This document shows positions 30,624-48,491 of a stretch of 64,000 bases of DNA, piece by piece (position 1 is the stretch's first letter; each line of letters starts with the position of its first letter). The position numbers were made by a program, and so were the translations under genes. Origin of the DNA: Promicromonospora sp. MEB111 (GTDB taxonomy: Bacteria; Actinomycetota; Actinomycetes; Actinomycetales; Cellulomonadaceae); the NCBI RefSeq assembly GCF_030209445.1, contig NZ_JARVSD010000018.1, forward strand, positions 124,001 to 188,000, given 5' to 3'. The notes under the pieces were generated by a model. The model searched no databases and was not told the DNA's origin. It saw only the letters and a list, made by a program, of their open reading frames with translations.

Positions 30624-30653
30624 CAGGTCATCCAACCGCTGGACCGGCGTCCC

Positions 30654-30690: not shown

Positions 30691-30744
30691 CTCTCTGAAC
30701 AGCACCCTATCCTCGGGCGTCGGGGCGTGCTACGGTCCCCATAC

Positions 30745-30762
30745 AAACCGACCAGACGGTAC
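30745..30762. promoter_or_regulatory. TetR-type operator, copy 1
   Basis: AAACCGACCAGACGGTAC, an imperfect dyad matching the stronger site at 34068-34085 (AAACCGGCCGGTCGGTTT), both preceded by ACA. It sits 9 bases before the SDR start codon, overlapping the ribosome-site region. The likely ligand is the TetR protein encoded at 31629. Confidence 0.6.
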
Positions 30763-30771
30763 GGAGGTAGC

Positions 30772-31590: not shown

Positions 31591-31628
31591 GCCGCCCGGC
31601 GACGGCGCTCGCGGTGAAGGATGTGCCC

Positions 31629-32231
31629 ATGCGCACCACGAACGTCCACGACCAGGTCCTGCGGGCCGCCCTCGACCTCTTCGCCTCGCAGGGCTACGCG
31701 ACCACGAGCGTCCAGCAGATCGTCGCCGCCGCGGGCGTCACCAAGGGCGCCATGTACCACTACTTCGCCTCCAAGGACGACCTGCTGTTCGCGATCTACG
31801 AGCGGATGCTGTCGCTGCAGAAGGCGCGGCTCGACCAGCTCGTCGCGGCGGGCGAGGAGCGAGGCGACGACGTGGAGCAGGTGCTGCGCGCCGTCTGCGA
31901 GGACGTGGTGACCACCTCGATCGAGCTGCTGCCCGAGGGCACCGTGTTCACCCGCAGCCAGCACATGCTCGCGCCGGAGCGGCAGGCGGAGGTCAAGCGG
32001 CGCCGTCGGGCGTACCACGACGACTTCCAGGCGCTGCTGGAGCGCGGGATCAAGGAGGGCGTGTTCCGCGACGACGTGCCCACCGCGGTGCTCATCGCCA
32101 ACTTCTTCTCCGACGTGCACTACCTGCCCCAGTGGTACTCGCCCACGGGGCCCGAGACCACCGCCGAGGTGGCGGAGCAGCTCACGGAGCTGTTCCTGCG
32201 CGGCATCAGACACGGCAGCAGGAAGGACTGA
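31629..32231 (+). CDS. TetR-family regulator of acyl-CoA catabolism
   Basis: 200 residues, ATG at 31629 behind GAAGG. The HTH VLRAALDLFASQGYATTSVQQIVAAAGVTKGAMYHYFASKDDLLF (about 8-52) is the FadR/KstR2-like type common in fatty-acid and CoA-ester regulons. It lies within the operon it probably regulates, followed 3 bases later by the quinone oxidoreductase. The candidate sites are the AAACCG dyads at 30745 and 34068; an acyl-CoA is the likely inducer (inference). Confidence 0.9.
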   Translation: MRTTNVHDQVLRAALDLFASQGYATTSVQQIVAAAGVTKGAMYHYFASKDDLLFAIYERMLSLQKARLDQLVAAGEERGDDVEQVLRAVCEDVVTTSIELLPEGTVFTRSQHMLAPERQAEVKRRRRAYHDDFQALLERGIKEGVFRDDVPTAVLIANFFSDVHYLPQWYSPTGPETTAEVAEQLTELFLRGIRHGSRKD

Positions 32232-32234
32232 GAC

Positions 32235-33257
32235 GTGAACCCACCCACGGCGATGAAGGCGTGGCGCGTGGTCTCCCACGGGGAGCCCGAGCAGGTGATG
32301 GAGCTGCACGACGTGCCGGTGCCCGAGCCCGGACCGGGCGAGGTGCTGGTCCGGGTGCGGGCCGTGGCGGTGAACTTCCCCGACGTCCTGCTGGCGCGCG
32401 GCGAGTACCAGGAGCGGCCCGAGCTGCCGTTCGTGCCGGGCATCGAGCTGTGCGGCGACGTCGTGGCGCTCGGGCCCGGCGTGACCGAGGGGGAGCGGGT
32501 GCGGGTGGGCGACCGTGTGGTCGGCTCGAAGATCGGGGTGCTGGCGCAGTACGCGACGGTCCCGGCCCAGGCGGTGCACGCGGCGCCGTCGGCCCTGGAC
32601 GACGCCCAGGCCGCCGCGCTGACGATCGCCTACCAGACGGCGTGGTTCGGGCTGCACCGGCGGGCCGGCCTGCGGGCGGGCGAGACGCTGCTGGTGCACG
32701 CCGCCGCGGGCGGCGTGGGCACGGCCGCGTGCCAGCTCGGCGCGGCTGCCGGCGCGCGCGTGGTCGGGGTGGTGGGCAGCCCGGAGAAGGTGGCCGCGGC
32801 CCGCGCCGCGGGCGCGGACGAGGTGTTCCTGCGCGACGACGACTGGGTCGGCGCGCTGCGCGGCGGTGTCGACGTGGTGTTCGACCCCGTGGGCGGCGAG
32901 TCGTTCGAGCGCTCCACGCGCTGCCTGGCGTTCGAGGGGCGGATCGTGGTGGTCGGGTTCGCGAGCGGGGAGCTGCCGAAGGTCCGGGCCGACCTCGCTC
33001 TGGTGAAGAACTACGGGGTGCTCGGCCTGCACTGGGCGCTCTACCAGCAGCGGCGGCCCGACCTCGTGGACGCCGCGCACGCCGAGCTGGAGCGGCTCGC
33101 CGCGACCGGTGTGCTGCGCCCGGCGCTGGGCGACGTGGTCGGGTTCGGCCAGGCGCCCGCCGCGGTGGCGCGGCTGGCGGGCGGCGCGACGACGGGGCGG
33201 CTCGTGGTCCGGGTGGCCGACGACGCGGTGGTCGGCGACGGGGAGGTGGCGGCATGA
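32235..33257 (+). CDS. NADPH:quinone oxidoreductase-like MDR protein
   Basis: 340 residues, zinc-independent medium-chain reductase. GroES-like N-domain with VNFPDVLLARGEYQERPELPFVPGIELCGDV, and NADPH domain with VHAAAGGVGTAACQLGAAAGARV. There are no zinc-ligand Cys clusters. Such enzymes reduce quinones, enones or enoyl-CoA-like double bonds; the operon context favours an enoyl-CoA or enone substrate. The GTG at 32235 is 3 bases after the tetR stop, and its own stop overlaps the next ATG. Confidence 0.88.
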   Translation: MNPPTAMKAWRVVSHGEPEQVMELHDVPVPEPGPGEVLVRVRAVAVNFPDVLLARGEYQERPELPFVPGIELCGDVVALGPGVTEGERVRVGDRVVGSKIGVLAQYATVPAQAVHAAPSALDDAQAAALTIAYQTAWFGLHRRAGLRAGETLLVHAAAGGVGTAACQLGAAAGARVVGVVGSPEKVAAARAAGADEVFLRDDDWVGALRGGVDVVFDPVGGESFERSTRCLAFEGRIVVVGFASGELPKVRADLALVKNYGVLGLHWALYQQRRPDLVDAAHAELERLAATGVLRPALGDVVGFGQAPAAVARLAGGATTGRLVVRVADDAVVGDGEVAA

Positions 33258-34024
33258 CGGCCCCGGGGGCGGGCCCGACGGTCGCCGCGCTGCACGACCT
33301 GACCGGCCGGGTCGCCCTCGTGACGGGCGCGGCGCGCGGCATCGGCGAGGCGTACGTGCGGATCCTGCACGACGCCGGTGCGCACGTGGTGATCACCGAC
33401 GTGCTGGACGCCGCGGGCCGGGCGCTGGCCGAGGAGCTGGGGGAGCGGGCCGGGTTCGCGCACCTGGACGTGACCGACGAGGACGCGTGGGAACGGGTCG
33501 TGGGCCAGGTGGTCGACGAGCTCGGCGGCGTGGACGTGCTGGTCAACAACGCGGGCATCGCCAACGCGGCCCCGATCGAGCACTTCACGCTCGCCAAGTG
33601 GAACGCCGTGATGGCGGTCAACGCCACGGGCGTGTTCCTGGGCTGCCGGGCAGTGGTGCCCACGATGAAGGCGGCGGGGCGCGGCTCGATCATCAACATC
33701 TCCTCGGTGGAGGGGTTGCGCGGGAGCTGGAGCCTGCACGGGTACACCGCCTCCAAGTTCGCGGTGCGGGGCCTGACCAAGTCGCTCGCCGTGGAGCTGG
33801 GCAAGGACGGGATCCGGGTCAACTCGGTGCACCCCGGCCTGGTCCTGACCGAGATGAGCGCGCGGATCGACCCCGACGCGCTGGTGATCCCGCTCGGCCG
33901 GCCGGGGGTGCCCGCCGACCTGGCGGGGACCATCCTGTTCCTCGCGAGCGAGGCGTCGGCGTGGATCTCCGGCCAGGAGATCGTGGTGGACGGCGGCATG
34001 ACCAGCGGGATACCGCACCGGTAG
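33254..34024 (+). CDS. SDR, 3-alpha/3-hydroxyacyl-CoA dehydrogenase type
   Basis: 256 residues. TGAARGIGEAYVRIL Rossmann loop near residue 24, LVNNAGIANAAPI, active site YTASKFAVRGLTKSLAVELG with Tyr near 159, and end VVDGGMTSGIPHR. The sequence type (GWxLHGYTASKFAV) resembles hydroxysteroid or 3-hydroxyacyl-CoA dehydrogenases with NAD preference; ITDVLD after beta2 supplies an Asp for NAD. It overlaps the previous gene by 4 bases and is the last gene before the transporter promoter region. Confidence 0.87.
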   Translation: MTAPGAGPTVAALHDLTGRVALVTGAARGIGEAYVRILHDAGAHVVITDVLDAAGRALAEELGERAGFAHLDVTDEDAWERVVGQVVDELGGVDVLVNNAGIANAAPIEHFTLAKWNAVMAVNATGVFLGCRAVVPTMKAAGRGSIINISSVEGLRGSWSLHGYTASKFAVRGLTKSLAVELGKDGIRVNSVHPGLVLTEMSARIDPDALVIPLGRPGVPADLAGTILFLASEASAWISGQEIVVDGGMTSGIPHR

Positions 34025-34067
34025 GACGCCCGCCGGCCGGTCGGCGGCGGCGTTCTGGGCCCCCAAC

Positions 34068-34085
34068 AAACCGGCCGGTCGGTTT
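34068..34085. promoter_or_regulatory. TetR-type operator, copy 2, before the Liv operon
   Basis: AAACCGGCCGGTCGGTTT is symmetric at 16 of 18 positions. It lies 32 bases before the first transporter gene and shares ACAAACCG-R-CC with the site at 30745. A related GC-rich dyad, CCGCCGGCCGGTCGGCGG, is at 34030-34047. Confidence 0.7.
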
Positions 34086-34117
34086 CGCACCCACCCATCC
34101 GACACGAAGAGGTGCCG

Positions 34118-34924
34118 ATGACGACGCAGAGCAGGACAGCAGACAGCCCGCCCCGGCTGGAGGTCTCGGGGCTGACCGTGACGTTCGGCGGCCTGACCGC
34201 CGTGGACGACGTGTCCTTCACCGTGGGCGACGGCGAGACCGTCGCGCTCATCGGCCCCAACGGTGCGGGCAAGACGACGGTGTTCAACGCCGTGTGCGGC
34301 CTGGTGCGCGCCCGGCGGGGCCAGGTCCGGGTGGACGGCGCGCCCGCGCCGTCGTCCGCGACCGGGCTGCTCGGGGCCGGGGTCTCCCGGACCCTGCAGG
34401 GCCTGGGGCTGTTCGACCGCCTCACGGTGCTGGAGAACGTGCTGGTGCCGCTGACCGGCACGAGCCCGCGCCGGCCCCGACGGCGCACCCCCGGCGGCTC
34501 GCGCGCCCGGGCCCTCGGGCTCGACACGGCCCGCGAGACGCTGGCCGCCCTCGGCCTGGGCGACCTGGCCGCGGTGCCCGCCGGGACGCTGCCCTACCCG
34601 GAGCGCAAGCGCGTGGCGCTCGCCCGCGCCCTGGTCACCCGGCCGCGGCTGCTGCTCCTGGACGAGCCCGCCGGCGGGCTCGGTCCCGCGGACATCGACC
34701 GGCTCGCGGGAACCGTGCGCGACGTGTCCGGCGCCGGCTGCTCCGTGCTGCTGGTCGAGCACCACGTCGACTTCGTGACGGACGTGGCCGACCGCGTGGT
34801 GGTGCTCGACTTCGGGCACGTCATCGCCGCCGGCACGCCCGACGAGGTGCGCCGCGACCCCGCCGTCGAGGAGGCCTACCTCGGCGTGCCCGCCGGGACC
34901 GGGGCCTCGGAGGAGACGGCATGA
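34118..34924 (+). CDS. livG: Liv-type ABC importer ATPase 1 (LivG-like)
   Basis: 268 residues from the ATG at 34118, GAAGAGG upstream. Walker A GPNGAGKTT near residue 47, Walker B LLLLDEPAGGL, and the LivG-type insertion region (about 95-135). The usual LSGGQ signature is replaced by LPYPERKRVALA, as in several LivG proteins that have (L)xYGxQR-like variants. The terminal VLDFGHVIAAGTPDEVRRDPAVEEAYLG is diagnostic of LivG. First gene of a complete five-gene importer; overlaps the next ATPase. Confidence 0.92.
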   Translation: MTTQSRTADSPPRLEVSGLTVTFGGLTAVDDVSFTVGDGETVALIGPNGAGKTTVFNAVCGLVRARRGQVRVDGAPAPSSATGLLGAGVSRTLQGLGLFDRLTVLENVLVPLTGTSPRRPRRRTPGGSRARALGLDTARETLAALGLGDLAAVPAGTLPYPERKRVALARALVTRPRLLLLDEPAGGLGPADIDRLAGTVRDVSGAGCSVLLVEHHVDFVTDVADRVVVLDFGHVIAAGTPDEVRRDPAVEEAYLGVPAGTGASEETA

Positions 34925-35652
34925 GCACCCTGACGATCGAGCGCCTCACCGTCGGTCACGGCGACGGCGCCGCCGTGCTGGACGGCCTCGACCTCGAGGT
35001 GCCCGCCGGCGGCGTCGTCGCGCTGCTCGGGGCCAACGGCGCCGGCAAGACGACGCTGCTGCGCGCCCTGCTGGGCCTGGTCCCCGTCCGCGGCGGCCGG
35101 GTGCTGCTCGACGGCGCCGACCTGACCGGGCTGCCCACCGAGGACCGCGCGCGCCGTGGGCTCGCGCTCGTCCCCGAGGGGCGCGGCGTGGTGGCCGAGC
35201 TGACCGTCGCGGAGAACCTCCGGCTCGGCGCCCTGTGGAGGGACGCGGGGCGGGGGCACACCAGCGCCGCGCGCGACGCCGCCGTCGGGCAGATGTACGA
35301 GCTGTTCGAGCCGCTGGCGCGGCGACGCGACGCCGCGGGCCACTCCCTGTCCGGGGGCGAGCGGCAGATGCTCGCGCTCGCCCGCGCCCTGGTGGCCCGG
35401 CCCGCGGTGCTCCTGCTCGACGAGCCCTCCCTGGGGCTGGCGCCGCTGGTGGTCGCCCAGCTCCTCGGCGTGCTCCGCGACCAGGCCCGGGCCACCGGGC
35501 TCACCGTGCTCCTGGCCGAGCAGAACGTCACCGGCGCGCTGTCGGTGGCCGACCGCGGCGTCGTCCTGTCCCTGGGGGAGGTCGTCGCCGACCGGCCGGC
35601 CGCCGCGCTGGCCGCCGACCCCGCCCTCCGCCACGCCTACCTGGGCTTCTAG
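34921..35652 (+). CDS. livF: Liv-type ABC importer ATPase 2 (LivF-like)
   Basis: 243 residues. Walker A GANGAGKTT near residue 40, signature LSGGERQM and Walker B VLLLDEPSLGLAPLVV. GLALVPEGRGVVAELTVAENL is the LivF-specific segment, and it ends RHAYLGF. Energises uptake with LivG. The ATG overlaps the LivG stop (ATGA). Confidence 0.93.
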   Translation: MSTLTIERLTVGHGDGAAVLDGLDLEVPAGGVVALLGANGAGKTTLLRALLGLVPVRGGRVLLDGADLTGLPTEDRARRGLALVPEGRGVVAELTVAENLRLGALWRDAGRGHTSAARDAAVGQMYELFEPLARRRDAAGHSLSGGERQMLALARALVARPAVLLLDEPSLGLAPLVVAQLLGVLRDQARATGLTVLLAEQNVTGALSVADRGVVLSLGEVVADRPAAALAADPALRHAYLGF

Positions 35653-35675
35653 CCGGTTTCGAGAGGAGACCAGCC

Positions 35676-36554
35676 ATGGAAAGACTCGTGTTCCTGCTGT
35701 CGACCGGACTCGCGCGCGGCGCCGTCCTCGCCCTGTTCGCGCTGTCGCTCGTGATCGTCTACCGGGCCGCCCGGGTCGTGAACTTCGCCCAGGCCGCCCT
35801 GGCGGTCGTGCCCGTCTACGTGGCCTTCGCGATCACGTCCGCCACCGGCTCGTACTGGCTGGGGCTCGCCGCCGCGCTCGCCACCGGCGCGCTGCTCGGT
35901 ACCGTGGTCGAGCGGCGGCTCATGCGCCTGGTGCCGCAGGACAACCCGCTGGCCGGCATCATCGTGGCGATCGGCCTGGTCATGGTGCTCCAGGCCGGGC
36001 TCGCGATCGCCTTCGGACCCGACCACCGGCCCGTGCACGCGCCGTTCCCGCAGCGGCCCCTCGAGGTGGGCGGCGTCGGGCTGATGAGCCCGTACGACCT
36101 GTTCGTGCTCGTGGTCGCCGCCGTCGTCATGGGCGGCCTGGCCCTCCTGTTCAACCGCACCTCGCTGGGCCTCCAGCTGCGCGCGGCGGCCTTCGCCCCC
36201 GAGACCTCCCGCCTGCTGGGCGTGCGCGTGCCCCGCATGGTCACGCTCGGCTGGACGCTCTCCATCGCCACCGCGGCGCTCGCGGCCCTGCTGCTGGTGC
36301 CCACGGGGCTCGGCCTGGACCCCCACGCGGCCGACGTGCTGTTCGTCAATGCGTTCGCCGCCGCCGTCGTCGGCGGGCTCGACTCGCCGGCGGGGGCCCT
36401 GGTGGCCGGGCTGTCGGTCGGCGTGCTCGTGGCCCTCGTGACCGGGTACGCGTCGGCCGCGGCGGCGCCGCCGGCGGTGCTCGCGCTCCTCACGGTCGTG
36501 CTGCTCGTGCGCCCGCAGGGGCTCTTCGCCGCGAGGGAGGCCCGGACCGCATGA
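35676..36554 (+). CDS. livH: Liv-type permease 1 (LivH-like)
   Basis: 292 residues, eight or so membrane helices. SLVIVYRAARVVNFAQAAL near the N-terminus and LRAAAFAPETSRLLGVRV (the EAA-like ATPase-contact loop) are LivH hallmarks; AAAVVGGLDSPAGALVAGL precedes the last helices. GAGAGGAG upstream supports the ATG at 35676. Overlaps the next permease by 4 bases. Confidence 0.92.
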   Translation: MERLVFLLSTGLARGAVLALFALSLVIVYRAARVVNFAQAALAVVPVYVAFAITSATGSYWLGLAAALATGALLGTVVERRLMRLVPQDNPLAGIIVAIGLVMVLQAGLAIAFGPDHRPVHAPFPQRPLEVGGVGLMSPYDLFVLVVAAVVMGGLALLFNRTSLGLQLRAAAFAPETSRLLGVRVPRMVTLGWTLSIATAALAALLLVPTGLGLDPHAADVLFVNAFAAAVVGGLDSPAGALVAGLSVGVLVALVTGYASAAAAPPAVLALLTVVLLVRPQGLFAAREARTA

Positions 36555-37591
36555 GACTCCTGCTGCGCGCCGGGCTGCTCACGCTGCTCGCCCTGGGCGC
36601 CACCTTCCTGCTCGACCCGTACCGCAACTACCAGCTCGCCACCGCGACCGGGGTCTTCGCCGCCGTGGCCGGGCTCACCCTCCTGGTCGGGCTCACCGGC
36701 CAGCTCTCCCTGGGGCACGGCGTGCTCATGGCCGCCGGCGGGTACGGGTACGCCCTGACCGCCACCCGGGTCGAGTCCGCGATCGAGGGCACCCCGGTGG
36801 CCGACGGCGTCGGCGGCCGGCTCCTGCCCCTGCTCGCCGGGGTGGCCGGCGCCCTGGTCACCTCGGGACTGCTCGGCCTGCTGCTCGGGCTGGCCGCTGC
36901 CCGGCTGCGCGGCCCCTACCTGGCGGGCCTGACGCTCGCCCTGGTGATCGCGCTGCCCTCGGCCGCGAGCACCATCCCCGGCCTGGCGGGGGAGCAGGGC
37001 GTGCGCGCCCCGTTCGTCCCCGTGCCCGACACGCTGGCGCTGCTCATCGCCACCGAGCAGTGGCACGCCTGGCTCGCGATCCTGGTCGCGGCCTGCGCCG
37101 TCACGCCGCTGGTCGCCCTGCGCGCCGGACGCGCGGGCCTGCGCATGCGCGCGGTGCACGACGACGAGACGGCCGCCCGCCTGGCCGGCGTCGACCCCGG
37201 CCGGGTCAAGGCCGGGGCTTTTGTGCTCAGCTCGCTCGCCGCGGGCCTGGGCGGCGCGGTGCTCGCCATCGTCACGCAGCAGGTCAGCCCCGGGGCGTAC
37301 GGCCTCGGGTTCTCGCTGCTGCTCGTGGTCGCCGCCGTGATCGGCGGGCTCGGCTCGCTCGGCGGCGCCGCGATCGGGGCGGTGCTCGTGACGCTGCTGC
37401 CGTGGGTCGTCGACCAGGCCACGGCCGCCCTGCCCGCCGATCTGGGCCACCGCCTGCAGGGCAACCTCGAGATCGCGCTGTTCGGCGTGGTCGTGATCGT
37501 CGTGACCGTCCTCCGGCCGGGCGGGCTCGCCCGGCTGTTCCCTGACCGCAAGCCCTTTCCCAGCCACGTCCTTTCCAACACAGTGAGGTGA
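36551..37591 (+). CDS. livM: Liv-type permease 2 (LivM-like)
   Basis: 346 residues, about ten membrane helices. LTGQLSLGHGVLMAAGGYGYA is the LivM signature, and LRMRAVHDDETAARLAGVDPGRVKAGAFVLSSLAAGLGGAV is the ATPase-contact loop. Ends in a short basic tail (LFPDRKPFPSHVLSNTVR). Forms the channel with LivH. The substrate cannot be read from the permease. Confidence 0.92.
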   Translation: MRLLLRAGLLTLLALGATFLLDPYRNYQLATATGVFAAVAGLTLLVGLTGQLSLGHGVLMAAGGYGYALTATRVESAIEGTPVADGVGGRLLPLLAGVAGALVTSGLLGLLLGLAAARLRGPYLAGLTLALVIALPSAASTIPGLAGEQGVRAPFVPVPDTLALLIATEQWHAWLAILVAACAVTPLVALRAGRAGLRMRAVHDDETAARLAGVDPGRVKAGAFVLSSLAAGLGGAVLAIVTQQVSPGAYGLGFSLLLVVAAVIGGLGSLGGAAIGAVLVTLLPWVVDQATAALPADLGHRLQGNLEIALFGVVVIVVTVLRPGGLARLFPDRKPFPSHVLSNTVR

Positions 37592-37597
37592 ACGGAA

Positions 37598-38875
37598 ATG
37601 CGCACTGCTTCTCTGTCCAGCCCCCGCTCCGTGGGCACGGCGGCCGTCCTCGGGCTGACCGCCGCGACGGCGCTGTCGGCCTGCTCCACCCCCGCGGCCG
37701 CCGAGGTCCCCGGCGTCACCGACGACACGGTGGTCATCGGCACCCACCAGCCGCTGACGGGTCCGGCCGCGGCCGGCTTCGCGTCGATCTCGGCGGCCAC
37801 CGCGGCGTACTTCGACCACGTGAACGCGAACGGCGGCATCCACGGCCGCGAGATCGAGTACGTCGTCAAGGACGACGGCTACAACCCCGCGAACACCCAG
37901 ACGGTGGTGCGCGAGCTGGTCCAGGAGGACGAGGTCTTCGCCGTCGTCAACGGCCTGGGCACGCCCACGCACTCCAGCGTGCTCGACTACCTGGCCCAGA
38001 ACGACGTGCCCGACCTGTTCGTCGCCTCGGGCTCCCTGACGTGGGACCAGCCGGAGGAGTACCCGAACACGTTCGGCTTCAACGCCGACTACGTGACCGA
38101 GGGCGCGGCGCTCGCGCAGTACGCGCTGGACACCGAGCCGGACGCCGTCGTCTGCGTGCTGGGCCAGGACGACGACTTCGGCGAGGGCATCCTGGCGGGC
38201 GTCGAGCTGGCCGTGGGCGCGGACGGGGTGGCGAGCAGCCAGACCTACTCCACCGCCGACCAGGACGTGACCGCGCAGATCGGCGCCATGAAGGAGGCCG
38301 GTTGCACGCACAACGTGCTCGGCACCATCAACGGGTTCACGGCCCTGGCCGTGGGCACGGCCGCGCAGATGGACTGGTTCCCGCGGTGGCACGTGTCCTC
38401 CTCGGGCGCCGACCACCCGACGCTCGTCGAGTACCTCGGCGCGGACGTCGCGCCGGTGCTGGAGGGCCTCGTCTCCGTGAACTACCTGCCCAACAGCCCG
38501 TCGTCCGAGTGGTACGAGCTGTTCTCGCGGATCAACGACGAGTACAACGACGGCGCGCCCTACACGGGCAACACCACCTACGGCATGAGCGTGGGCTACC
38601 AGTTCGCCGAGGCGCTCGCGGCGGCCGGCACCGACCCGACCCGGGAATCGATCGTGGCGGCGATCGAGTCGGGTGAGCTGCAGGGCAACGGCATCGCGCC
38701 GCTGACGTACTCCGCGGAGGATCATCTTGCCCATCGCACCGTCCGCATCGCGGTGGTGACGGACGGCGTGCAGGACTTCACCGACGAGGCCTACACGGTG
38801 TCCGAGGCCGGGGCGACCCCGGCCGAGCCCGCGCAGGTGCCGCTGGAGAACGAGGGCATCCCGGTCACCGAGTGA
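37598..38875 (+). CDS. livK: Liv-type substrate-binding lipoprotein
   Basis: 425 residues. N-terminal lipoprotein signal with lipobox LSAC at about residues 26-29 (ALSACSTPAAAE). Periplasmic-binding fold type I follows (VVIGTHQPLTGPAAAGFASISAATAAYFDHVNANGGIHGREI). In actinobacteria it is tethered to the outer face of the membrane. This Liv/Amt branch takes amino acids, amides, aromatic or carboxylic acids; given the downstream acyl-CoA genes a carboxylic acid is more likely than leucine (inference). Follows LivM by 6 bases. Confidence 0.92.
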   Translation: MRTASLSSPRSVGTAAVLGLTAATALSACSTPAAAEVPGVTDDTVVIGTHQPLTGPAAAGFASISAATAAYFDHVNANGGIHGREIEYVVKDDGYNPANTQTVVRELVQEDEVFAVVNGLGTPTHSSVLDYLAQNDVPDLFVASGSLTWDQPEEYPNTFGFNADYVTEGAALAQYALDTEPDAVVCVLGQDDDFGEGILAGVELAVGADGVASSQTYSTADQDVTAQIGAMKEAGCTHNVLGTINGFTALAVGTAAQMDWFPRWHVSSSGADHPTLVEYLGADVAPVLEGLVSVNYLPNSPSSEWYELFSRINDEYNDGAPYTGNTTYGMSVGYQFAEALAAAGTDPTRESIVAAIESGELQGNGIAPLTYSAEDHLAHRTVRIAVVTDGVQDFTDEAYTVSEAGATPAEPAQVPLENEGIPVTE

Positions 38876-38932
38876 CCGGGGTCCGGCGAGGGCGCCGCAC
38901 CGGAACCAGAACCACCGCAGGGAAGGGGAACC

Positions 38933-40051
38933 ATGACGAACGAACTGCCCGGCCTGGACGTCGCCGGCCTGTCCGCCTGGCTGGCCAGGGAGCACCCGGA
39001 GCTCGCGGGTCCGGACACCGGCCCGGGCCCCGGGCTGACGGCGACCCTCGTCCCCGGCGGCCGCAGCAACCTCACCTACCGGGTGGACGGCGCCGCCCGT
39101 CCGCTGGTGCTGCGGCGCCCGCCGCTGGGGCACGTGCTGTCCAGCGCGCACGACATGCGGCGCGAGCACCGCGTCATCACCGCCCTGGCGGGGACGATCC
39201 CGGTGCCGCCCACGGTGGCGGTGGTGGACGACACCGCCGCCGCCGAGGTCACGGGCACCGTGTTCTTCGTCATGGGGTACGTGGCCGGCGCCGTCCTGGC
39301 CCGGCCCGAGGACAACGCGGCCTGGACCCCCGCGGGCCTGGGCCGGCTCGCGACCGAGCTGGCCGAGGTGCTGGCGGACCTGCACGGCACCGACCCCGTC
39401 GCGGTCGGGCTGGCCGACTTCGGCCGGCCCGCCGGGTACCTGGGCCGTCAGCTCAAGACCTGGCGGCGCCAGTACGACGCCTCCAGGTCGCGGCCCCAGC
39501 CACTCCTGGACACCCTCCAGGAGCGGCTGGCGGACGCGGTGCCCGACGACGGGGCGCGCTCCGGCATCGTGCACGGCGACTACCGGCTCGACAACGTGCT
39601 CGTGGCCGGGCGGCCCGACGCGCCCCACGTCGCGGCGGTGCTGGACTGGGAGATGGCCACGCTCGGCGACCCGCTCGTGGACCTGGGCATGCTCGGCATG
39701 TACTGGGACATCCACGAGCTGACGCGGGCGGCCGGCGTCGTCGGCGTCGCCGGGGCGATCGTGCCCGGCGCGGGCTACCCGGACTTCGCCGAGGTCATCG
39801 ACGCCTACGCGGCCCGCGCCGGCATCGCCGTGCCGGACCTGGCCTGGTACCGGGCGTTCGCCTGCTACAAGCTCGCGGTCATCCTCGAGGGCATCCACTA
39901 CCGGTTCACCGGCGGCCAGACCGTCGGCGCCGGGTTCGACACGATCGGCGCCCTGGTGGCGCCGCTGGCCGCCGAGGGGCTGGCCCGGCTCGGCGTCGCG
40001 ACCGGCGGCGTCGTCCCGTCCCGTCCCGCCACCACGGAAGGGGGAGCCTGA
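38933..40051 (+). CDS. APH-like kinase, ACAD10/11 N-domain (LvaA) type
   Basis: 372 residues of aminoglycoside-phosphotransferase fold. Catalytic loop IVHGDYRLDNVLV (His214, Asp216, Asn221) and metal-binding VLDWEMATLGDPLVDLGML (Asp near 238). An N-terminal Gly-rich loop, PGGRSNLTYRV, is also seen. This subgroup equals the N-terminal half of human ACAD10/11 and Pseudomonas LvaA, which phosphorylate the 4-hydroxy group of 4-hydroxyacyl-CoA. The stop overlaps the ATG of an acyl-CoA dehydrogenase, so the two halves are coupled as separate genes. Antibiotic resistance is unlikely in this context. Confidence 0.87.
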   Translation: MTNELPGLDVAGLSAWLAREHPELAGPDTGPGPGLTATLVPGGRSNLTYRVDGAARPLVLRRPPLGHVLSSAHDMRREHRVITALAGTIPVPPTVAVVDDTAAAEVTGTVFFVMGYVAGAVLARPEDNAAWTPAGLGRLATELAEVLADLHGTDPVAVGLADFGRPAGYLGRQLKTWRRQYDASRSRPQPLLDTLQERLADAVPDDGARSGIVHGDYRLDNVLVAGRPDAPHVAAVLDWEMATLGDPLVDLGMLGMYWDIHELTRAAGVVGVAGAIVPGAGYPDFAEVIDAYAARAGIAVPDLAWYRAFACYKLAVILEGIHYRFTGGQTVGAGFDTIGALVAPLAAEGLARLGVATGGVVPSRPATTEGGA

Positions 40052-41304
40052 TGGACTTCGCACCCGACGAGACGACCCGGGAGGTCACCGGCCGGGTCCG
40101 GGACTTCCTGGCGGACGACGTGCTGCCCGCCGAGCCCGTGCTCGCCGCGCAGCTCGCTGCCACCCCCGACGACTGGTCGTTCCGGCCCGTCGTGCGCCAC
40201 CTGCAGGCCACGGCCCGCGAGCGGGGCCTGTGGAACCTGTTCGGCGGCCTGACCAACCTGCAGTACGCCCCCGTGGCCGAGCTGACCGGGTACAGCCCCC
40301 GGCTCGCGCCCGTCGCCATGAACTGCGCCGCGCCCGACACCGGCAACATGGAGCTGCTTGCCCACTTCGCCACGCCCGAGCAGCGCGAGCGCTGGCTCGA
40401 CCCGTTGCTGGACGGCGCGCAGCGGTCGGCGTTCTGCATGACCGAGCCCGGCGTCGCGTCGTCGGACGCCACGAACATCGCCACCCGCATCGTGCGCGAG
40501 GGTGACGAGTACGTGATCACCGGCCGCAAGTGGTTCGCCACGGGCGCGATGAACCCGGACTGCGGGCTGCTGGTCGTGATGGGCAAGACGGACCCGGACG
40601 CGCCCCGGCACCGGCAGCAGTCCATGGTGCTCGTGCCCCGCGACACCCCCGGCGTCACCGTGCTGCGCGGCCTGACCGTGCTGGGCTACGACGACCGCGA
40701 CCACGGCGGCCACGCCGAGATCGTGTTCGACGACGTCCGCGTGCCCGCCACCGCGCTGCTGGGCGGCGAGGGCGACGGGTTCGCCATGGCCCAGGCCCGC
40801 CTCGGGCCCGGCCGCATCCACCACTGCATGCGCGCCCTCGGCACGGCCGAGCGGGCGCTGGACCTGGTGCGCGAGCGCGCCGCCGAGCGGGTCGCGTTCG
40901 GCCGGCCGCTCGCCGACCAGGGCGTGGTGCGCGAGTGGGCCGCCACCTCCCGCATCGAGATCGAGTCGCTGCGCCTGCTCGTGCTCAAGACCGCCTGGCT
41001 CATGGACACCGTCGGCAACAAGGCCGCCATGACCGAGATCCAGGCCATCAAGATCGCGGTACCCCGCGCCGTCGGGCAGATCCTGGACCGCGCCGTCCAG
41101 GTGTTCGGCGCCGCCGGGGTCTCCGGCGACCACCCCCTGGCCGAGCTGCTCGCCGGCGTCCGCACCCTGCGCCTGGCCGACGGGCCCGACGAGGTGCACC
41201 TCGCCTCCCTCGGCCGGGCCGAGCTCCGCCGTCGTGCGCCCTACCTGGCGCGCCCCTCCGCAACCCCGTCAGCCCCGTCGACCGTCGAAGGAGACCCGAC
41301 ATGA
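40051..41304 (+). CDS. Acyl-CoA dehydrogenase, ACAD10/11 C-domain (LvaC) type
   Basis: 417 residues. FAD/substrate motifs AFCMTEPGVASSDATNIATRI and ITGRKWFATGA, and dimer region RVAFGRPLADQGVVREWAA. The region of the usual catalytic Glu (YEGT motif) reads LADGPDEVH (about 375-383), typical of the ACAD10/11 group; an Asp stands where Glu is expected. In that group the enzyme eliminates phosphate from 4-phosphoacyl-CoA, isomerising the acid for beta-oxidation. Overlaps the kinase upstream (TGATG) and the ligase downstream (ATGA). Confidence 0.9.
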   Translation: MDFAPDETTREVTGRVRDFLADDVLPAEPVLAAQLAATPDDWSFRPVVRHLQATARERGLWNLFGGLTNLQYAPVAELTGYSPRLAPVAMNCAAPDTGNMELLAHFATPEQRERWLDPLLDGAQRSAFCMTEPGVASSDATNIATRIVREGDEYVITGRKWFATGAMNPDCGLLVVMGKTDPDAPRHRQQSMVLVPRDTPGVTVLRGLTVLGYDDRDHGGHAEIVFDDVRVPATALLGGEGDGFAMAQARLGPGRIHHCMRALGTAERALDLVRERAAERVAFGRPLADQGVVREWAATSRIEIESLRLLVLKTAWLMDTVGNKAAMTEIQAIKIAVPRAVGQILDRAVQVFGAAGVSGDHPLAELLAGVRTLRLADGPDEVHLASLGRAELRRRAPYLARPSATPSAPSTVEGDPT

Positions 41305-42959
41305 CCCCAGCACCCGCCGCCGCGCCCGACCCCGCCGTCGACGGGCCCGGGTACGGCACCCTGTCCATCGCGAGCATGCTCGCCGAGACCGCCCGCCGGT
41401 ACCCCGGCCGCCCCGCCCTGTACTTCCTGGGGCAGGCCACCACCTACGGCGACCTCTGGGACCAGACCCGCGCGTACGCGGGGGCGCTCGCGGCCCGGGG
41501 CATCGGGCCGGGCTCGCGCGTGGCGATGATCGTGCCGAACGTGCCCGACTTCGCGCGCGTCTACTACGCCACCCTCGCGCTCGGCGCCGTCGTGGTCCCG
41601 GTGCACCTGCTGTTCCGCACGGACGAGATCGAGTTCGTGCTGCGGGACGCGGGGGCCGACGTCGTGGTGGTCGCCGCCCCGATGCTGGCGGAGGCCGCCC
41701 CCGCGGCCGCGCGGGCCGGCGTGCCGCTGCTGACCGTGCTGCTGCCGCAGGACGCCGCCCGCCGGCTCGCCGACCAGGGCACCCCGGTGGGGCGGCTGGA
41801 GGACGAGGCGGCCGCGGCCACGCCGATCGAGCGGCACGCGAGCGTCAACCCCCTGGCCGCGGCCACCATCCTGTACACGAGCGGCACCACGGGCACGCCC
41901 AAGGGCGCGGTGGGCTCGCACCTGGCGATGGTCGAGCAGGTGCACTGCTCCCTGATCGACTCGTTCGACCTGCGGCCCGACGACGTGGTGTACGGCGGCC
42001 TGCCGTTCTTCCACTCGTTCGGCCAGATGGCGGTGCTCAACATGGCGTTCCGGCGCGGCGCGTCGATCGTGCTGCTGCCCCGGTTCGACCCGGACGAGGC
42101 CCTGGAGCTGCTGGTGGCGCACGGCGCGACCGTGTTCACGGCCGTGCCGACCAACTTCGCGGGCATGGTCGAGGCGGCCCGCCGGTCGGCGGCGCGGCCC
42201 CCGCTGCGGTTCGCCGTCTCCGGCGGTGCGGCGCTGCCGGTGGCGCTGCTGGAGGCGTTCGAGGAGGCGTACGGCGCGCAGGTGCACGAGGGGTACGGGC
42301 TCACCGAGACGTCGCCGTCGTGCACCTTCAACGTGACGTCCGAACCCATCCGGCCCGGGACCGTGGGCCGCCCCATGTGGGGCGTCGACGTGGCCGTGGC
42401 GGTGGCCGAGGTGGAGGACCGGGTCGAGCTGCTGCCCGCCCCGGCGCCGGGCTCCGCGGCCGGGGAGCAGAGCGAGCTGGGCGAGATCGTGGTGCGCGGG
42501 CACAACCTGATGAAGGGGTACCTGGGCCGCCCGGACGCCTCGGCGGCCGCCGTCGTGGACGGGTGGTTCCGCACCGGCGACCTGGGCACCGTCGACGCGG
42601 ACGGCATCGTGACGGTCGTGGACCGCAAGAAGGACATGATCATCCGCAACGGCTACAACGTGTATCCCACGGAGGTCGAGGCGGTGCTGGCCCGCTACCC
42701 GGGGGTCGCGCTGGCCGCGGTGTTCGGCGTGCCCGACGCCGCGCGCGGGCAGGAGGTGCACGCCGCCGTCGTGCCGTCCTCCGGGGCCGACGTGGACCCG
42801 GACGCCGTGGTCGCGTACATGAAGGAGCACGTCGCGGCGTACAAGTACCCCCGCGTGGTGCACGTCTCCCCGGACCTGCCGCTGGGCCCGAGCGGCAAGG
42901 TGCTCAAGCGCGAGCTGACGGCCCGGCACTCGGCCCCGGACCTGGCTCGGGAGGGGTGA
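41301..42959 (+). CDS. Acyl-CoA synthetase (AMP-forming)
   Basis: 552 residues, ANL superfamily. P-loop TILYTSGTTGTPKGAVGSH, A5 motif GYGLTETSPSC, A8 hinge WFRTGDLGTVDADGIVTVVDRKKDMIIRNGYNVYPTEVE, and the A10 Lys in PLGPSGKVLKREL. Activates a carboxylic acid to the CoA thioester. Its 4-base overlap with the ACAD gene puts activation, phosphorylation and elimination in one transcript. The 3' end overlaps the convergent thioesterase gene by 56 bases. Confidence 0.92.
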   Translation: MTPAPAAAPDPAVDGPGYGTLSIASMLAETARRYPGRPALYFLGQATTYGDLWDQTRAYAGALAARGIGPGSRVAMIVPNVPDFARVYYATLALGAVVVPVHLLFRTDEIEFVLRDAGADVVVVAAPMLAEAAPAAARAGVPLLTVLLPQDAARRLADQGTPVGRLEDEAAAATPIERHASVNPLAAATILYTSGTTGTPKGAVGSHLAMVEQVHCSLIDSFDLRPDDVVYGGLPFFHSFGQMAVLNMAFRRGASIVLLPRFDPDEALELLVAHGATVFTAVPTNFAGMVEAARRSAARPPLRFAVSGGAALPVALLEAFEEAYGAQVHEGYGLTETSPSCTFNVTSEPIRPGTVGRPMWGVDVAVAVAEVEDRVELLPAPAPGSAAGEQSELGEIVVRGHNLMKGYLGRPDASAAAVVDGWFRTGDLGTVDADGIVTVVDRKKDMIIRNGYNVYPTEVEAVLARYPGVALAAVFGVPDAARGQEVHAAVVPSSGADVDPDAVVAYMKEHVAAYKYPRVVHVSPDLPLGPSGKVLKRELTARHSAPDLAREG

Positions 42960-43365
42960 CGCCGAGGTGGTCCTCGACCGCGGCGCGGATCACGTCCGGC
43001 ACCGGCACGGGTCGGCGCGCGGCCCGGTCCACGAAGACGTGCGTGAAGCTGCCCGTCGCGTACGCCTCGCTCCGGTCGGGCGCGCCCGCGCGCAGGATCG
43101 CCAGGTCCCAGGTGAGCGAGCTGCGCCCGAGGCGCCCGACGGCGACGTCGACCTCCAGCTCCTCGGGGAACGACGCCGGGGCGAGGAACTCGCACGAGGA
43201 GGCGCGGGCGAGCCCGATCACGGCGCCCGCCGGGTCCAGGTCGGTGTGCCTGATGAGCCAGGTGTTCACCGCCGTGTCCATGGCCTCGTAGTAGACGGTG
43301 TTGTTCATGTGCCCGTACTGGTCGTTGTCGTTCCAGCGCAGCGGGAAGGGGTGCCGATAGCCCAT
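42904..43365 (-). CDS. Hotdog acyl-CoA thioesterase (YbgC/4HBT-like)
   Basis: 153 residues from the ATG at 43365. The catalytic segment LRWNDNDQYGHMNNTVYYEAMDTAVNTW (Asp near 13 and HMNN) is the 4-hydroxybenzoyl-CoA thioesterase family signature. It hydrolyses acyl-CoA, probably to relieve CoA trapping. The last 13 residues are a Pro/Gly/Ala tail (PGPGPSAGPSARA) encoded antisense to the ligase C-terminus; a convergent 56-base overlap. It is divergent from the acyl-CoA dehydrogenase at 43458, with the 37-bp motif between. Confidence 0.85.
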   Translation of the reverse strand: MGYRHPFPLRWNDNDQYGHMNNTVYYEAMDTAVNTWLIRHTDLDPAGAVIGLARASSCEFLAPASFPEELEVDVAVGRLGRSSLTWDLAILRAGAPDRSEAYATGSFTHVFVDRAARRPVPVPDVIRAAVEDHLGVTPPEPGPGPSAGPSARA

Positions 43366-43457: not shown

Positions 43458-44657
43458 ATGACGCTCGCACCCGAGCCACCCGCCACGGACCTGCTGGAGG
43501 CGGACTTCTACGCGTTCCAGGACCTGCTCACCCCGGCCGAGCAGAAGAAGGCCCTGGCCGTCCGGGAGTTCATGGAGCGCGAGGTGCGCCCCATCGCGGA
43601 CGACTACTGGGAGCGCGCCGAGTGCCCCGTGCACCTGTTCAAGCCCTACGCGCAGCTCGGCACCATCGGGTCGGGCTGGGCCGAGACGCAGGGGGAGGAC
43701 ACCTCGGCCGTGTTCCGCGGCTGGGTGGGCATGGAGACGGCGCGCGTCGACTCCTCGTTCTGCACCTTCATCGGGGTCTCCGGCGGCCTGGCGATGACCT
43801 CGATCGGCCTCGGCGGCTCCGCCGAGCAGCGCGAGCAGTGGCTGCCGCCCATGGCGGCCGGCGACGTGATCGGCGCGTTCGGGCTCACCGAGCCCCTGGC
43901 CGGCTCCGACACCGCCAAGGGCCTGCGCACCACCGCCACCCGCACCGGCGACACCTGGGTGCTCGACGGCGCCAAGCGCTGGATCGGCAACGCCACGTTC
44001 GCCGACGTCGTGGTCATCTGGGCCAAGGACACCGCCGACGACCAGGTCAAGGGCTTCCTGGTGCGCAAGGGCACGCCCGGCTTCACCGCCACCAAGATCG
44101 AGCGCAAGCAGTCCCTGCGCATCGTGCAGAACGCCGACATCGTGCTCGACGGCGTCCGCGTCGACGAGGCCGACCGCCTGCAGCACATCAACAGCTTCCG
44201 CGACGTCGCCAAGGTGCTGCGCATCACCCGCGACGGCGTGTCCTGGCAGGCGCTGGGCACCATGATCGGCGCCTACGAGGCCGCCGTGGCCTACACCAGG
44301 CAGCGCGAGCAGTTCGGCAACCCCATCGCCAGCTACCAGCTCATCCAGGACAAGCTCGCCACGGCGTACGCGAACGTCACGGCGAGCTTCGCCATGTGCG
44401 TCCGCGTGGCACAGCTCCAGGACCGCGGCACCCAGACCGACGCCCACGCCGCGATGGCCAAGGCGTTCGTCACCACCCGCATGCGCGAGACCGTCGCGCT
44501 GTGCCGGGAGGCATGCGGCGGCAACGGGATCACACTGGATCACGGCGTGGCGCGGTTCTTCGCCGACGCCGAGGCGGTCTACACGTTCGAGGGGACCAAG
44601 GACATGAACCAGCTCATCGTGGGCCGCGCCATCACCGGCCACGCGGCGTTCGTCTGA
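43458..44657 (+). CDS. Acyl-CoA dehydrogenase (glutaryl-CoA/short-chain type)
   Basis: 399 residues from the ATG at 43458 with GGAGGA upstream. GAFGLTEPLAGSDTAKGLRTTATR and RWIGNATFADVVVIWAKD are the FAD/substrate motifs. The catalytic Glu is in VYTFEGTKDMNQLIVGRAITG (about 378), as in glutaryl-CoA and ACX4-type dehydrogenases. Unlike the dehydrogenase at 40051 it keeps the classic base, so it should do true alpha,beta-dehydrogenation of the saturated acyl-CoA. It opens the second part of the degradation cluster. Confidence 0.9.
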   Translation: MTLAPEPPATDLLEADFYAFQDLLTPAEQKKALAVREFMEREVRPIADDYWERAECPVHLFKPYAQLGTIGSGWAETQGEDTSAVFRGWVGMETARVDSSFCTFIGVSGGLAMTSIGLGGSAEQREQWLPPMAAGDVIGAFGLTEPLAGSDTAKGLRTTATRTGDTWVLDGAKRWIGNATFADVVVIWAKDTADDQVKGFLVRKGTPGFTATKIERKQSLRIVQNADIVLDGVRVDEADRLQHINSFRDVAKVLRITRDGVSWQALGTMIGAYEAAVAYTRQREQFGNPIASYQLIQDKLATAYANVTASFAMCVRVAQLQDRGTQTDAHAAMAKAFVTTRMRETVALCREACGGNGITLDHGVARFFADAEAVYTFEGTKDMNQLIVGRAITGHAAFV

Positions 44658-44700: not shown

Positions 44701-45924
44701 ATGACCGAGGCCTACATCGTGGCCACCGCGCGCTCGCCCATCGGGCGCGCGCACAAGGGGTCGCTGAAGGACGTGCGCCCCGACGACCTCGCCGCCGAGA
44801 TGGTGCGCGCCGCCGTCGGGCAGGTGCCGGGGCTGGACCCGGCGCGGATCGACGACCTGCTGCTGGGCTGCGGCCTGCCGGGCGGCAAGCAGGGCATGAA
44901 CCTGGCGCGCATCGTCGCGGTGCTGTGCGGCTGGGACACCGTGCCCGGCGCGACCGTCACGCGCTACTGCAGCTCCAGCCTGCAGACCACGCGCATGGCG
45001 TTCCACGCGATCAAGGCGGGTGAGGGCGACGTCTTCGTCTCCGCGGGCGTGGAGTCCGTCAGCTCGTTCGCGACCGGGTCGAGCGACTACATCCCGGGCG
45101 TGGACCTGCACAACCCCGTCTTCGCAGACGCCCTGGCCCGCACCGAGAAGCGCGCCGGGGCCGGCACCGGCCTGTGGACCGACCCGCGGCTGGAGGGCGT
45201 GCTGCCCGACGCGTACATCTCGATGGGGCAGACGGCGGAGAACGTCGCCGCCCTGCGCGGCATCACGCGCGCCGAGCAGGACGAGTTCGCCGCCCGCAGC
45301 CAGCAGCGTGCGCAGGCCGCCGTCGCGGCCGGCTTCTGGGCCCGGGACATCACGCCCGTCACCCTGCCCGACGGCACGGTCGTGTCCGCCGACGACGGCC
45401 CGCGGCCGGGCACCACCGTGGAGAAGCTCGCGACGCTGGAGCCGGTGTTCCGCCCCGACGGCAGCGTCACCGCGGGCAACGCCTGCCCGCTGAACGACGG
45501 CGCCGCCGCGGTCGTCGTCGTCTCCGGCCGGGTCGTCGACGAGCTCGGCCTGACGCCGCTGGCCCGCATCGTGTCCACCGGGGTCAGCGGGCTGTCCCCG
45601 GAGATCATGGGGCTCGGCCCCGTCGACGCCAGCCGGCAGGCGCTGCGCCGCGCGGGGCTCACGGTCGACGACATGGACCTCGTGGAGATCAACGAGGCGT
45701 TCGCCGCGCAGGTGGTCCCGTCGGCGCGCGAGCTCGGCGTGGACGAGGAGCGGCTGAACGTCAACGGCGGCGCCATCGCCGTGGGCCACCCGTTCGGGAT
45801 GACCGGGGCGCGCATCACCTCCACCCTGATCAACGCGCTCGCGGACACCGGCGGCCAGTACGGTCTGGAGACGATGTGCGTGGGCGGCGGGCAGGGCATG
45901 GCGATGGTGCTGGAGAAGCTCTGA
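44701..45924 (+). CDS. Thiolase (acetyl-CoA C-acyltransferase)
   Basis: 407 residues. Nucleophile Cys90 in VTRYCSSSLQTTRMAFHAI, the second-site His in NGGAIAVGHPFGMTGAR (about 363), and Cys in MCVGGGQGMAMVLEKL (about 393). Cleaves 3-oxoacyl-CoA with CoA to release acetyl-CoA or propionyl-CoA. GGAGGAG 7 bases upstream of the ATG at 44701. Downstream of the acyl-CoA dehydrogenase and before the zinc ADH: a normal beta-oxidation order. Confidence 0.94.
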   Translation: MTEAYIVATARSPIGRAHKGSLKDVRPDDLAAEMVRAAVGQVPGLDPARIDDLLLGCGLPGGKQGMNLARIVAVLCGWDTVPGATVTRYCSSSLQTTRMAFHAIKAGEGDVFVSAGVESVSSFATGSSDYIPGVDLHNPVFADALARTEKRAGAGTGLWTDPRLEGVLPDAYISMGQTAENVAALRGITRAEQDEFAARSQQRAQAAVAAGFWARDITPVTLPDGTVVSADDGPRPGTTVEKLATLEPVFRPDGSVTAGNACPLNDGAAAVVVVSGRVVDELGLTPLARIVSTGVSGLSPEIMGLGPVDASRQALRRAGLTVDDMDLVEINEAFAAQVVPSARELGVDEERLNVNGGAIAVGHPFGMTGARITSTLINALADTGGQYGLETMCVGGGQGMAMVLEKL

Positions 45925-45935
45925 AGGGAGCAGGC

Positions 45936-48416: not shown

Positions 48417-48491
48417 GGTCAGATGCTCTTGACCGAACTGTTCGGCACAGCCCGACCTGTCGAGCCCGCCGCAGTGTTGCGAACAGATGGT

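What the first reader, a model, noticed from the sequence alone, without database searches (positions are those of the whole stretch)
34118..42959. Putative 4-hydroxy acid degradation operon with a dedicated Liv-type importer
A complete ABC importer is followed by an APH-like kinase, an ACAD10/11-type acyl-CoA dehydrogenase and an acyl-CoA ligase with start/stop overlaps. In Pseudomonas levulinate degradation (LvaA, LvaC, LvaE) and in human ACAD10/11, the kinase/dehydrogenase pair phosphorylates and eliminates a 4-hydroxy group of the CoA ester. Fusing this to its own importer would give a transport-to-CoA route for lactone-derived, levulinate-like or 4-hydroxy fatty acids. I know of no description of this combination.
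Basis: partly seen in the sequence, partly recalled or inferred. Interest (0 to 1): 0.85.

Follow-up and report, generated by a model that had tools for sequence, protein, structure and literature searches.

The report
Importer-equipped pathway for 4-hydroxy acids
A soil actinobacterium carries a gene set that appears to take up hydroxylated acids from outside, remove the awkward hydroxyl group by way of a phosphate and burn the rest; the chemistry is known from Pseudomonas and mammals, while the linked uptake system and shared control switch look new.

Summary
The eight genes are there, in the order described. Kinase and dehydrogenase carry every ACAD10/11–LvaA/LvaC residue I could place by number (phosphorylate 4-OH-acyl-CoA, eliminate phosphate). 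The module is wider than marked, about 30.0–48.3 kb, with a TetR_C_24 regulator, SDRs, thioesterase, second dehydrogenase, thiolase, alcohol dehydrogenase and MaoC hydratase. New here: a TetR-type palindrome (ACATACCGNNNNGTCGGTWTNT) lies before the importer in 26 of 26 loci with an adequate LivG hit, and before the kinase operon in 16 of 16 closely related loci (15 distinct records) where kinase and importer are on opposite strands. In the host genome it occurs twice (up to 3 mismatches), both in this cluster; the control pattern hit once. In another genus 6 of 10 importers encoded far from the kinase carry it, two of them barely. Importer and enzymes are inherited together. The binding protein lacks the glutamate of LivJ (mature position 226); its nearest folds include a fatty-acid-binding and a valine-binding protein. 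What is imported is unproven: 4-hydroxy/4-oxo acids, or fatty acids generally. Known chemistry with a new uptake and control architecture: a new variant, not a new kind.

The parts
29994..30599 (-). TetR-family gene (TetR_C_36); start uncertain
   Evidence: Pfam TetR_C_36 3.4e-36 on the containing ORF 29994-31112; homologues in many complete clusters
30743..30764 (-). operator site 2, between the TetR_C_36 gene and the SDR-TetR_C_24-MDR-SDR unit
   Evidence: PWM score 24.9; one of the two sites in the whole genome at up to 3 mismatches
30796..31590 (+). SDR oxidoreductase (SDR0); start uncertain
   Evidence: Pfam adh_short_C2 2.4e-48; NF005559 262 bits, cutoff 215
31590..32231 (+). TetR_C_24 regulator, likely owner of the operator; start uncertain
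   Evidence: Pfam TetR_C_24 2.4e-24 and TetR_N 3.8e-18; relatives sit beside operator-bearing kinase loci that show no TetR_C_36 hit
32235..33257 (+). MDR/PIG3-like NAD(P)H quinone-type oxidoreductase
   Evidence: Pfam; TIGR02824 206 bits, below its cutoff of 297
33254..34024 (+). SDR oxidoreductase (SDR1)
   Evidence: Pfam adh_short_C2 3.8e-67
34066..34087 (+). operator site 1, upstream of the importer operon
   Evidence: conserved at the same place in the 25 loci aligned and in 26 of 26 loci scored
34118..34924 (+). LivG-type ATPase
   Evidence: Pfam ABC_tran plus BCA_ABC_TP_C
34921..35652 (+). LivF-type ATPase
   Evidence: Pfam ABC_tran 1.3e-30
35676..36554 (+). LivH-type permease
   Evidence: Pfam BPD_transp_2 2.1e-27
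36551..37591 (+). LivM-type permease
   Evidence: Pfam BPD_transp_2 7.6e-32
37598..38875 (+). Liv-type substrate-binding lipoprotein
   Evidence: Peripla_BP_6 7.6e-56; AlphaFold pLDDT 85.9; fold matches 3lkb, 4n03, 4kv7
38933..40051 (+). APH-fold kinase, LvaA/ACAD11-kinase-like
   Evidence: APH 2.2e-47; aligned to the ACAD11 kinase domain
40051..41304 (+). ACAD11/LvaC-class dehydrogenase (phosphate-eliminating)
   Evidence: 2wbi 2.6e-124; R250, R255, H258, R261, D377
41301..42959 (+). AMP-forming acyl-CoA ligase
   Evidence: AMP-binding 8.1e-85; best models are fatty-acid ligases, the 25 shown all below their cutoffs
42907..43365 (-). 4HBT-fold thioesterase
   Evidence: 4HBT_2 2.5e-16
43458..44657 (+). 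ordinary acyl-CoA dehydrogenase (ACD2)
   Evidence: Pfam ACAD domains; HHCMR-type motif in 0 of 26 orthologues over 60% identical
44701..45924 (+). thiolase
   Evidence: NF005890 723.5 bits, cutoff 580
45912..47054 (+). zinc alcohol dehydrogenase; start uncertain
   Evidence: ADH_N, ADH_zinc_N
47088..47837 (+). FabG-like SDR (candidate 3-hydroxyacyl-CoA dehydrogenase)
   Evidence: Pfam; NF009466 224 bits, cutoff 222
47834..48310 (+). MaoC-type hydratase
   Evidence: MaoC_dehydratas 2.6e-23

Best explanation
This is a TetR-controlled catabolic module for exogenous 4-hydroxy acids, or 4-oxo acids that one of its SDRs reduces to them. The Liv-type ABC importer takes up the free acid (inferred). 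The AMP ligase makes the CoA ester (inferred from family). The APH-fold kinase phosphorylates the 4-hydroxyl of the CoA ester and the ACAD11-class enzyme eliminates the phosphate to give 2-enoyl-CoA (strongly inferred from conserved catalytic and phosphate-binding residues; shown by others for LvaA/LvaC and ACAD10/11). MaoC hydratase, SDR and thiolase complete a beta-oxidation turn (inferred from families). The TetR_C_24 protein represses the units through the shared palindrome and is probably relieved by a pathway acyl-CoA (inferred). Shown here: the genes, the residues, the conserved operator, co-occurrence and co-inheritance. Not shown: any activity or ligand.
For: Dehydrogenase: residues equivalent to mouse ACAD11 R626, R631, H634, R637 and catalytic D753 are all present (R250, R255, H258, R261, D377), with the same 116-residue spacing from R637 to D753 as in the paper's numbering and in the human chain (roles from PMC12440821 passages). 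The phosphate-site motif is in 81 of 82 homologues and in 0 of 26 orthologues of the neighbouring ordinary dehydrogenase. Kinase: catalytic D216, N221 and CoA-contact R172 align with ACAD11 D220, N225, R176; 88 of 88 homologues, the window's own included, keep HGD[YF][RK]LDN and DWE. Importer link: in 150 family genomes 32 have the dehydrogenase, 30 the SBP (each E<=1e-100), 29 both, all 29 with kinase and SBP on one contig, starts 1.1-22.4 kb apart. Operator before LivG in 26 of 26 loci, and before the kinase operon in 16 of 16 closely related loci (15 distinct records) where kinase and importer are on opposite strands, by a matrix trained on LivG sites only; L056, a diverged opposite-strand locus, has both sites too. 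Two genome-wide sites in the host, both in the cluster; reversed-pattern control 0 and 1. Site density 184 in 321 kb of upstream zones against 23 in 2.5 Mb elsewhere (training sites included). Importer and enzyme tree distances correlate at r 0.95, 0 of 2000 permutations as high. SBP has Ser at the LivJ Glu226 position in 20 of 23, Ala, Ile or Val in the rest; 4n03, titled a fatty acid ABC transporter binding protein, is second by Z (39.1).
Confidence: 0.68

Rival explanations
1. A general short/medium-chain fatty-acid import and beta-oxidation module: the importer carries ordinary fatty acids, and the kinase/ACAD11 pair only clears 4-hydroxy intermediates, for instance those left when longer hydroxy fatty acids are shortened.
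For: The cluster holds an ordinary ACAD, thiolase, MaoC and FabG-like SDR. In genus g75 the operator also precedes a large acyl-CoA dehydrogenase and an SDR; in two f26 genomes it precedes SDR-ligase-TetR_C_24 and SDR-TetR_C_24-MDR units. A fatty-acid-binding SBP is among the nearest folds.
Against: The host has four further ACADs and four further thiolases above family cutoff outside the cluster, and no operator site there at up to 3 mismatches. The site stands directly before the kinase in 35 of 54 loci without an adequate LivG hit, though these loci were fetched by kinase similarity, so this does not show that the kinase is the commonest target.
Confidence: 0.22
2. The importer carries amino acids or another unrelated nutrient and merely lies next to the pathway.
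For: All five subunits are Liv-type; fold matches include amino-acid binders, one at the top.
Against: Shared operator even where importer and kinase are on opposite strands or at distant loci; LivJ Glu226 replaced; importer and ligase are missing together in G111.
Confidence: 0.07
3. Aromatic-acid (phenylacetate-like) regulon: the operator core matches that of Burkholderia PaaR.
For: ACCGACCGGTCGGT is the PaaR operator in PMC2770484 (passages); one operator-like site (3 mismatches) lies before homogentisate dioxygenase in G425.
Against: No ring-hydroxylating or paa-type genes among the cluster genes scanned; related TetR proteins can share operator cores.
Confidence: 0.03

Closest known systems
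lva operon of Pseudomonas putida (LvaA-G; Rand et al. 2017, not held; known here through passages of PMC6692424, PMC12440821 and PMC11342911)
   Same: APH-fold kinase, ACAD11-class dehydrogenase, acyl-CoA ligase and SDR encoded together
   Different: ABC importer instead of the acetate-permease-type LvaG and LvaF; TetR instead of sigma54-type LvaR; no LvaB seen; own thiolase, MaoC, thioesterase and extra ACAD
Mammalian ACAD10/ACAD11
   Same: kinase plus phosphate-eliminating dehydrogenase with the HCMR/Arg/Asp active site
   Different: two separate proteins here; no HAD domain; importer and regulator attached
Liv/HAAT ABC importers (E. coli LivFGHMJ/K)
   Same: subunit composition and folds
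   Different: SBP 19-20% identical to LivJ/LivK and without Glu226; encoded with lipid-type catabolic genes
PaaR operator of Burkholderia cenocepacia (PMC2770484, passages)
   Same: TetR palindrome core ACCGACCGGTCGGT
   Different: different target genes; longer CATACCG...CGGTATG flanks here

Membership tests
4-hydroxyacyl-CoA kinase (LvaA / ACAD10/11 kinase domain) | catalytic Asp and Asn of the loop, substrate-contact Arg | tested here: met
   D216, N221, R172 aligned to ACAD11 D220, N225, R176 (chain numbering is one below the paper's). The paper's R86 could not be matched by number; an Arg (R77) beside the aligned alpha-C Glu (E78) is present
4-hydroxyacyl-CoA kinase (LvaA / ACAD10/11 kinase domain) | phosphorylates 4-hydroxyacyl-CoA | not testable with these tools
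   needs an assay
ACAD10/11-LvaC dehydrogenase | R626, H634, R637 phosphate site and catalytic Asp D753 | tested here: met
   R250, H258, R261, D377 with identical spacing
ACAD10/11-LvaC dehydrogenase | kinase partner adjacent or fused | tested here: met
   genes overlap at 40051
lva operon | ligase, SDR, kinase and ACAD together | tested here: met
lva operon | LvaB partner of LvaA | tested here: inconclusive
   no room for a gene between kinase and ACAD; not searched genome-wide; also not found in the P. citronellolis cluster (PMC6692424 passage)
Liv/HAAT ABC importer | two ATPases, two BPD_transp_2 permeases, Peripla_BP_6 SBP | tested here: met
branched-chain amino acid specificity | LivJ ligand contact Glu226 (role recalled) | tested here: not met
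   Ser in 20 of 23 and Ala, Ile, Val in the rest; alignment at about 19% identity, anchored on an invariant Gly
single TetR regulon | shared operator before importer and enzyme units | tested here: met
   binding itself not tested

The most novel reading that the evidence does not exclude
Actinomycetes run a dedicated, TetR-sensed scavenging regulon for exogenous 4-hydroxy acids, including ring-opened gamma-lactones such as signalling butyrolactones of neighbours. It would have its own ABC importer, making it both a feeding route and a signal-destroying route, and the first importer assigned to this metabolite class.
Probability: 0.06. Interest if true: 0.85.

Novelty: new variant of a known kind. 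Interest (0 to 1): 0.55.

Why it matters
The papers I saw passages of assigned the 4-hydroxy acid pathway in mammals in 2024-2025; in bacteria it is known through levulinate. This locus offers a candidate uptake system for such acids, a candidate regulator and operator that define a wider actinomycete regulon, and a compact test set (binding protein, kinase, dehydrogenase, TetR) that could show what bacteria use this chemistry for. It also offers parts for lactone or levulinate conversion and sensing.

Tried and rejected
Considered and set aside: antibiotic-kinase reading of the APH gene (best NCBIfam resistance model 42.9 bits against a cutoff of 390; its solved relatives include ACAD11). Ordinary amino-acid operon (see rivals). 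An exact-palindrome search upstream of LivG with arms of 7 or more found nothing consistent, and a first narrow pattern matched the window but none of 20 orthologues; the operator was found by reading the upstream sequences printed and then testing a matrix. Sigma-70 promoter scan: 0 (shuffles mean 0.2); terminator scan: 2 (shuffles 1.6).

Results against my reading. Operator below the cutoff of 14 upstream of LivG in 18 of 29 loci whose importer is away from the kinase; one of the 29 is the host's own other Liv system, used as a negative control. Two of the six positive g75 importers (L167 14.7, L197 14.4) barely pass. Only 10 of the 12 g75 genomes were examined. No operator upstream of the kinase in 19 of 54 loci without an adequate LivG hit (L016, whose importer is partly lost in a stretch with 1000 N is among the 54). 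In G329, G510 and G398 the importer has the site but the ACAD11 loci (L185-L189) show no kinase hit and one weak site; for G525 and G397, whose importers also have it (L147, L152), the ACAD11 locus was not fetched; in G425 no site within 3 mismatches lies at the ACAD11 locus. Importers 50-54% identical to this SBP (L134-L136) lack both kinase and operator. Four g80 loci with ACAD11 8.6-16 kb from an importer (kinase seen in three; L123-L126) have no operator, nor do six f21 loci where a kinase homologue directly follows the importer (L148, L155-L157, L160, L166). The both-motif test was met strictly by 67 of 82 dehydrogenase homologues; of the 15 misses 13 show DGPDEVH in the printed tails and 2 are broken or truncated (L016, L078). 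The tree correlation would also arise from joint vertical descent, and the trees were midpoint-rooted without support values shown.

Literature: ten searches listed no paper on this combination; two lists were capped (20 of 285, 15 of 117). Only open-licence PMC was searchable, and the original levulinate paper was not held. I saw passages only, of PMC12440821, PMC11342911, PMC6692424 and PMC2770484.

Full report
WHAT IS THERE. The window lies in a 6.23-Mb genome (35 contigs, 99.4% complete) whose nearest named relatives are Promicromonospora species (kinase 81-83% identical). The eight genes described are present and in order. Around them lie further genes that recur with them elsewhere: upstream SDR - TetR_C_24 - PIG3-like MDR - SDR (about 30.8-34.0 kb) and a divergent TetR_C_36 gene; downstream a thioesterase on the other strand, an ordinary acyl-CoA dehydrogenase, a thiolase, a zinc alcohol dehydrogenase, a FabG-like SDR and a MaoC hydratase, ending at 48.3 kb.

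THE CHEMISTRY. The dehydrogenase matches ACAD11 chains at E about 1e-124 and one unnamed putative ACAD at 5.6e-120; the next chain is at 7.1e-38. [quoted passage not shown] All are present here (R250, H258, R261, D377; also the general R255), with the same spacing of 116 from R637 to D753. The motif is found in 81 of 82 homologues fetched and in none of 26 orthologues of the neighbouring ordinary dehydrogenase. The kinase aligns over most of its length with the ACAD11 kinase domain and keeps the catalytic Asp, its Asn partner and the CoA-contact Arg176; I could not reconcile the paper's R86 with the chain numbering, though an Arg next to the aligned alpha-C Glu is present. PMC11342911 (passages) reports that bacterial orthologues can replace both ACAD10 domains. 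I regard 4-hydroxyacyl-CoA dehydroxylation as very likely, though not assayed.

THE IMPORTER BELONGS TO IT. (a) Synteny: of 80 kinase loci from named genomes, 26 hold an importer with an adequate LivG hit; 24 of these carry the closely related cluster in two arrangements, colinear (Promicromonospora, Glycomyces, Phytomonospora and an unnamed MAG) or with importer and kinase on opposite strands (Isoptericola, Krasilnikoviella, Nesterenkonia, Demequina, Cellulomonas), and two (Allonocardiopsis L056, Actinomadura L093) carry diverged versions. (b) Co-occurrence in 150 genomes of the family: dehydrogenase 32, SBP 30, both 29 (E<=1e-100); the genomes are related, so the Fisher value overstates significance. 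In all 29, kinase and SBP lie on one contig, starts 1.1 to 22.4 kb apart. (c) Co-inheritance: distances in the importer tree and the enzyme tree (25 loci) correlate at 0.95, with 0 of 2000 permutations as high; in both trees Promicromonospora sits with Glycomyces and Phytomonospora rather than with Isoptericola, which suggests transfer as a block. (d) A natural deletion: G111, same genus, one contig, keeps the kinase, both dehydrogenases and several oxidoreductases but shows no importer, ligase, thioesterase, thiolase, alcohol dehydrogenase or MaoC hit in the 20 kb examined, and no SBP match in the genome at E<=1e-30. Importer and ligase are thus absent together.

A SHARED OPERATOR. Upstream of LivG in the 25 loci aligned lies ACATACCG-NNNN-GTCGGTWTNT, a TetR-type palindrome. 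A matrix trained only on these LivG sites then found sites (score 14 or more) before the kinase operon in all 16 closely related loci with the opposite-strand arrangement (L022, L024, L030, L031, L032, L035, L036, L037, L040, L042, L137-L142; L042 and L138 are the same record, so 15 distinct), and in the diverged L056; before the alcohol dehydrogenase, the SDR/TetR unit and the thioesterase/dehydrogenase pair in many clusters; and before the kinase in 35 of 54 loci without an adequate LivG hit, many of them Streptomyces and relatives. Twenty mononucleotide shuffles of the window gave no site at that cutoff; in 155 real loci, 184 sites fell in 321 kb of upstream zones and 23 in 2.5 Mb elsewhere (training sites are among the 184 and some loci are redundant). 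In the host genome the pattern with up to 3 mismatches occurs twice, both in this cluster (reversed-pattern control 0 and 1). In genus g75, where importer and kinase loci are far apart, all ten kinase loci fetched carry sites, the main one before the SDR upstream of the kinase (19.3 or more), and six of the ten importers carry one (L153, L161, L164, L167, L171, L197; two barely). In G415 the pattern occurs at six places in 6.5 Mb (control 0): two at the kinase locus, one before the importer, one before a second SBP without permeases, one before an SDR and one at a large acyl-CoA dehydrogenase. In two genomes of family f26 (Streptomyces-like by my guess) sites precede kinase-ACAD11 and SDR-ligase-TetR_C_24 (G302) and SDR-TetR_C_24-MDR (G425). 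The regulator is most likely the TetR_C_24 protein, since its relatives sit beside operator-bearing kinase loci that show no TetR_C_36 hit. The core equals the PaaR operator of Burkholderia cenocepacia, so a related acyl-CoA-type sensor is plausible (inference).

LIMITS. The dehydrogenase is widespread (255 of 394 class genomes), SBP relatives much less so (85 of 394), and 33 of 49 SBP contexts examined lack both kinase and dehydrogenase; the importer is an add-on in part of the group. In G329, G510 and G398 the importer has the operator but the ACAD11 loci fetched show no kinase hit and almost no site. Four g80 loci and six f21 loci with linked genes lack the operator. No function was measured.

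VERDICT. The dedicated importer is supported by regulation and inheritance rather than by any ligand. The enzymatic part is known; the importer link and the operator-defined regulon did not appear in my ten searches of open literature.

Noticed in passing
window 34099-34117 and upstream of LivG in most cluster loci: The leader CCGACACGAAGAGGTGCCG just before the LivG start is almost letter-for-letter conserved across genera, more than a ribosome-binding site alone would explain.
   Followed up: no
L128 (G111): One-contig genome of the same genus in which importer, ligase, thioesterase, thiolase, alcohol dehydrogenase and MaoC are missing from the cluster while kinase and ACAD11 remain: a natural deletion strain.
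   Followed up: partly
L148, L155, L156, L157, L160, L166: In a distant lineage (f21) a kinase homologue (42-48% identical) follows LivGFHM-SBP directly, with no ACAD11 in the stretch and no operator: a second, independent-looking importer-kinase linkage.
   Followed up: partly
L173, L177, L198, L199: Second SBPs without permeases in genus g75; L173, L177 and L198 have an operator-like site in front and L199 one close by.
   Followed up: partly
L222 near 15462: Operator-like site (3 mismatches) before homogentisate 1,2-dioxygenase in G425; chance or a wider regulon.
   Followed up: partly
window 50834-54835, 24475-25557 and 48407-49717: DNA polymerase III alpha homologue and a DinB/ImpB-type polymerase gene; ORF 48407-49717 before the former has no Pfam match at 0.001, while in G111 the gene in a like position after the cluster is an IMS-type polymerase relative.
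   Followed up: partly
G000:C35:84035-85135, outside the window (L133): A second Liv-type importer on the same contig (SBP 26% identical), without the operator.
   Followed up: partly
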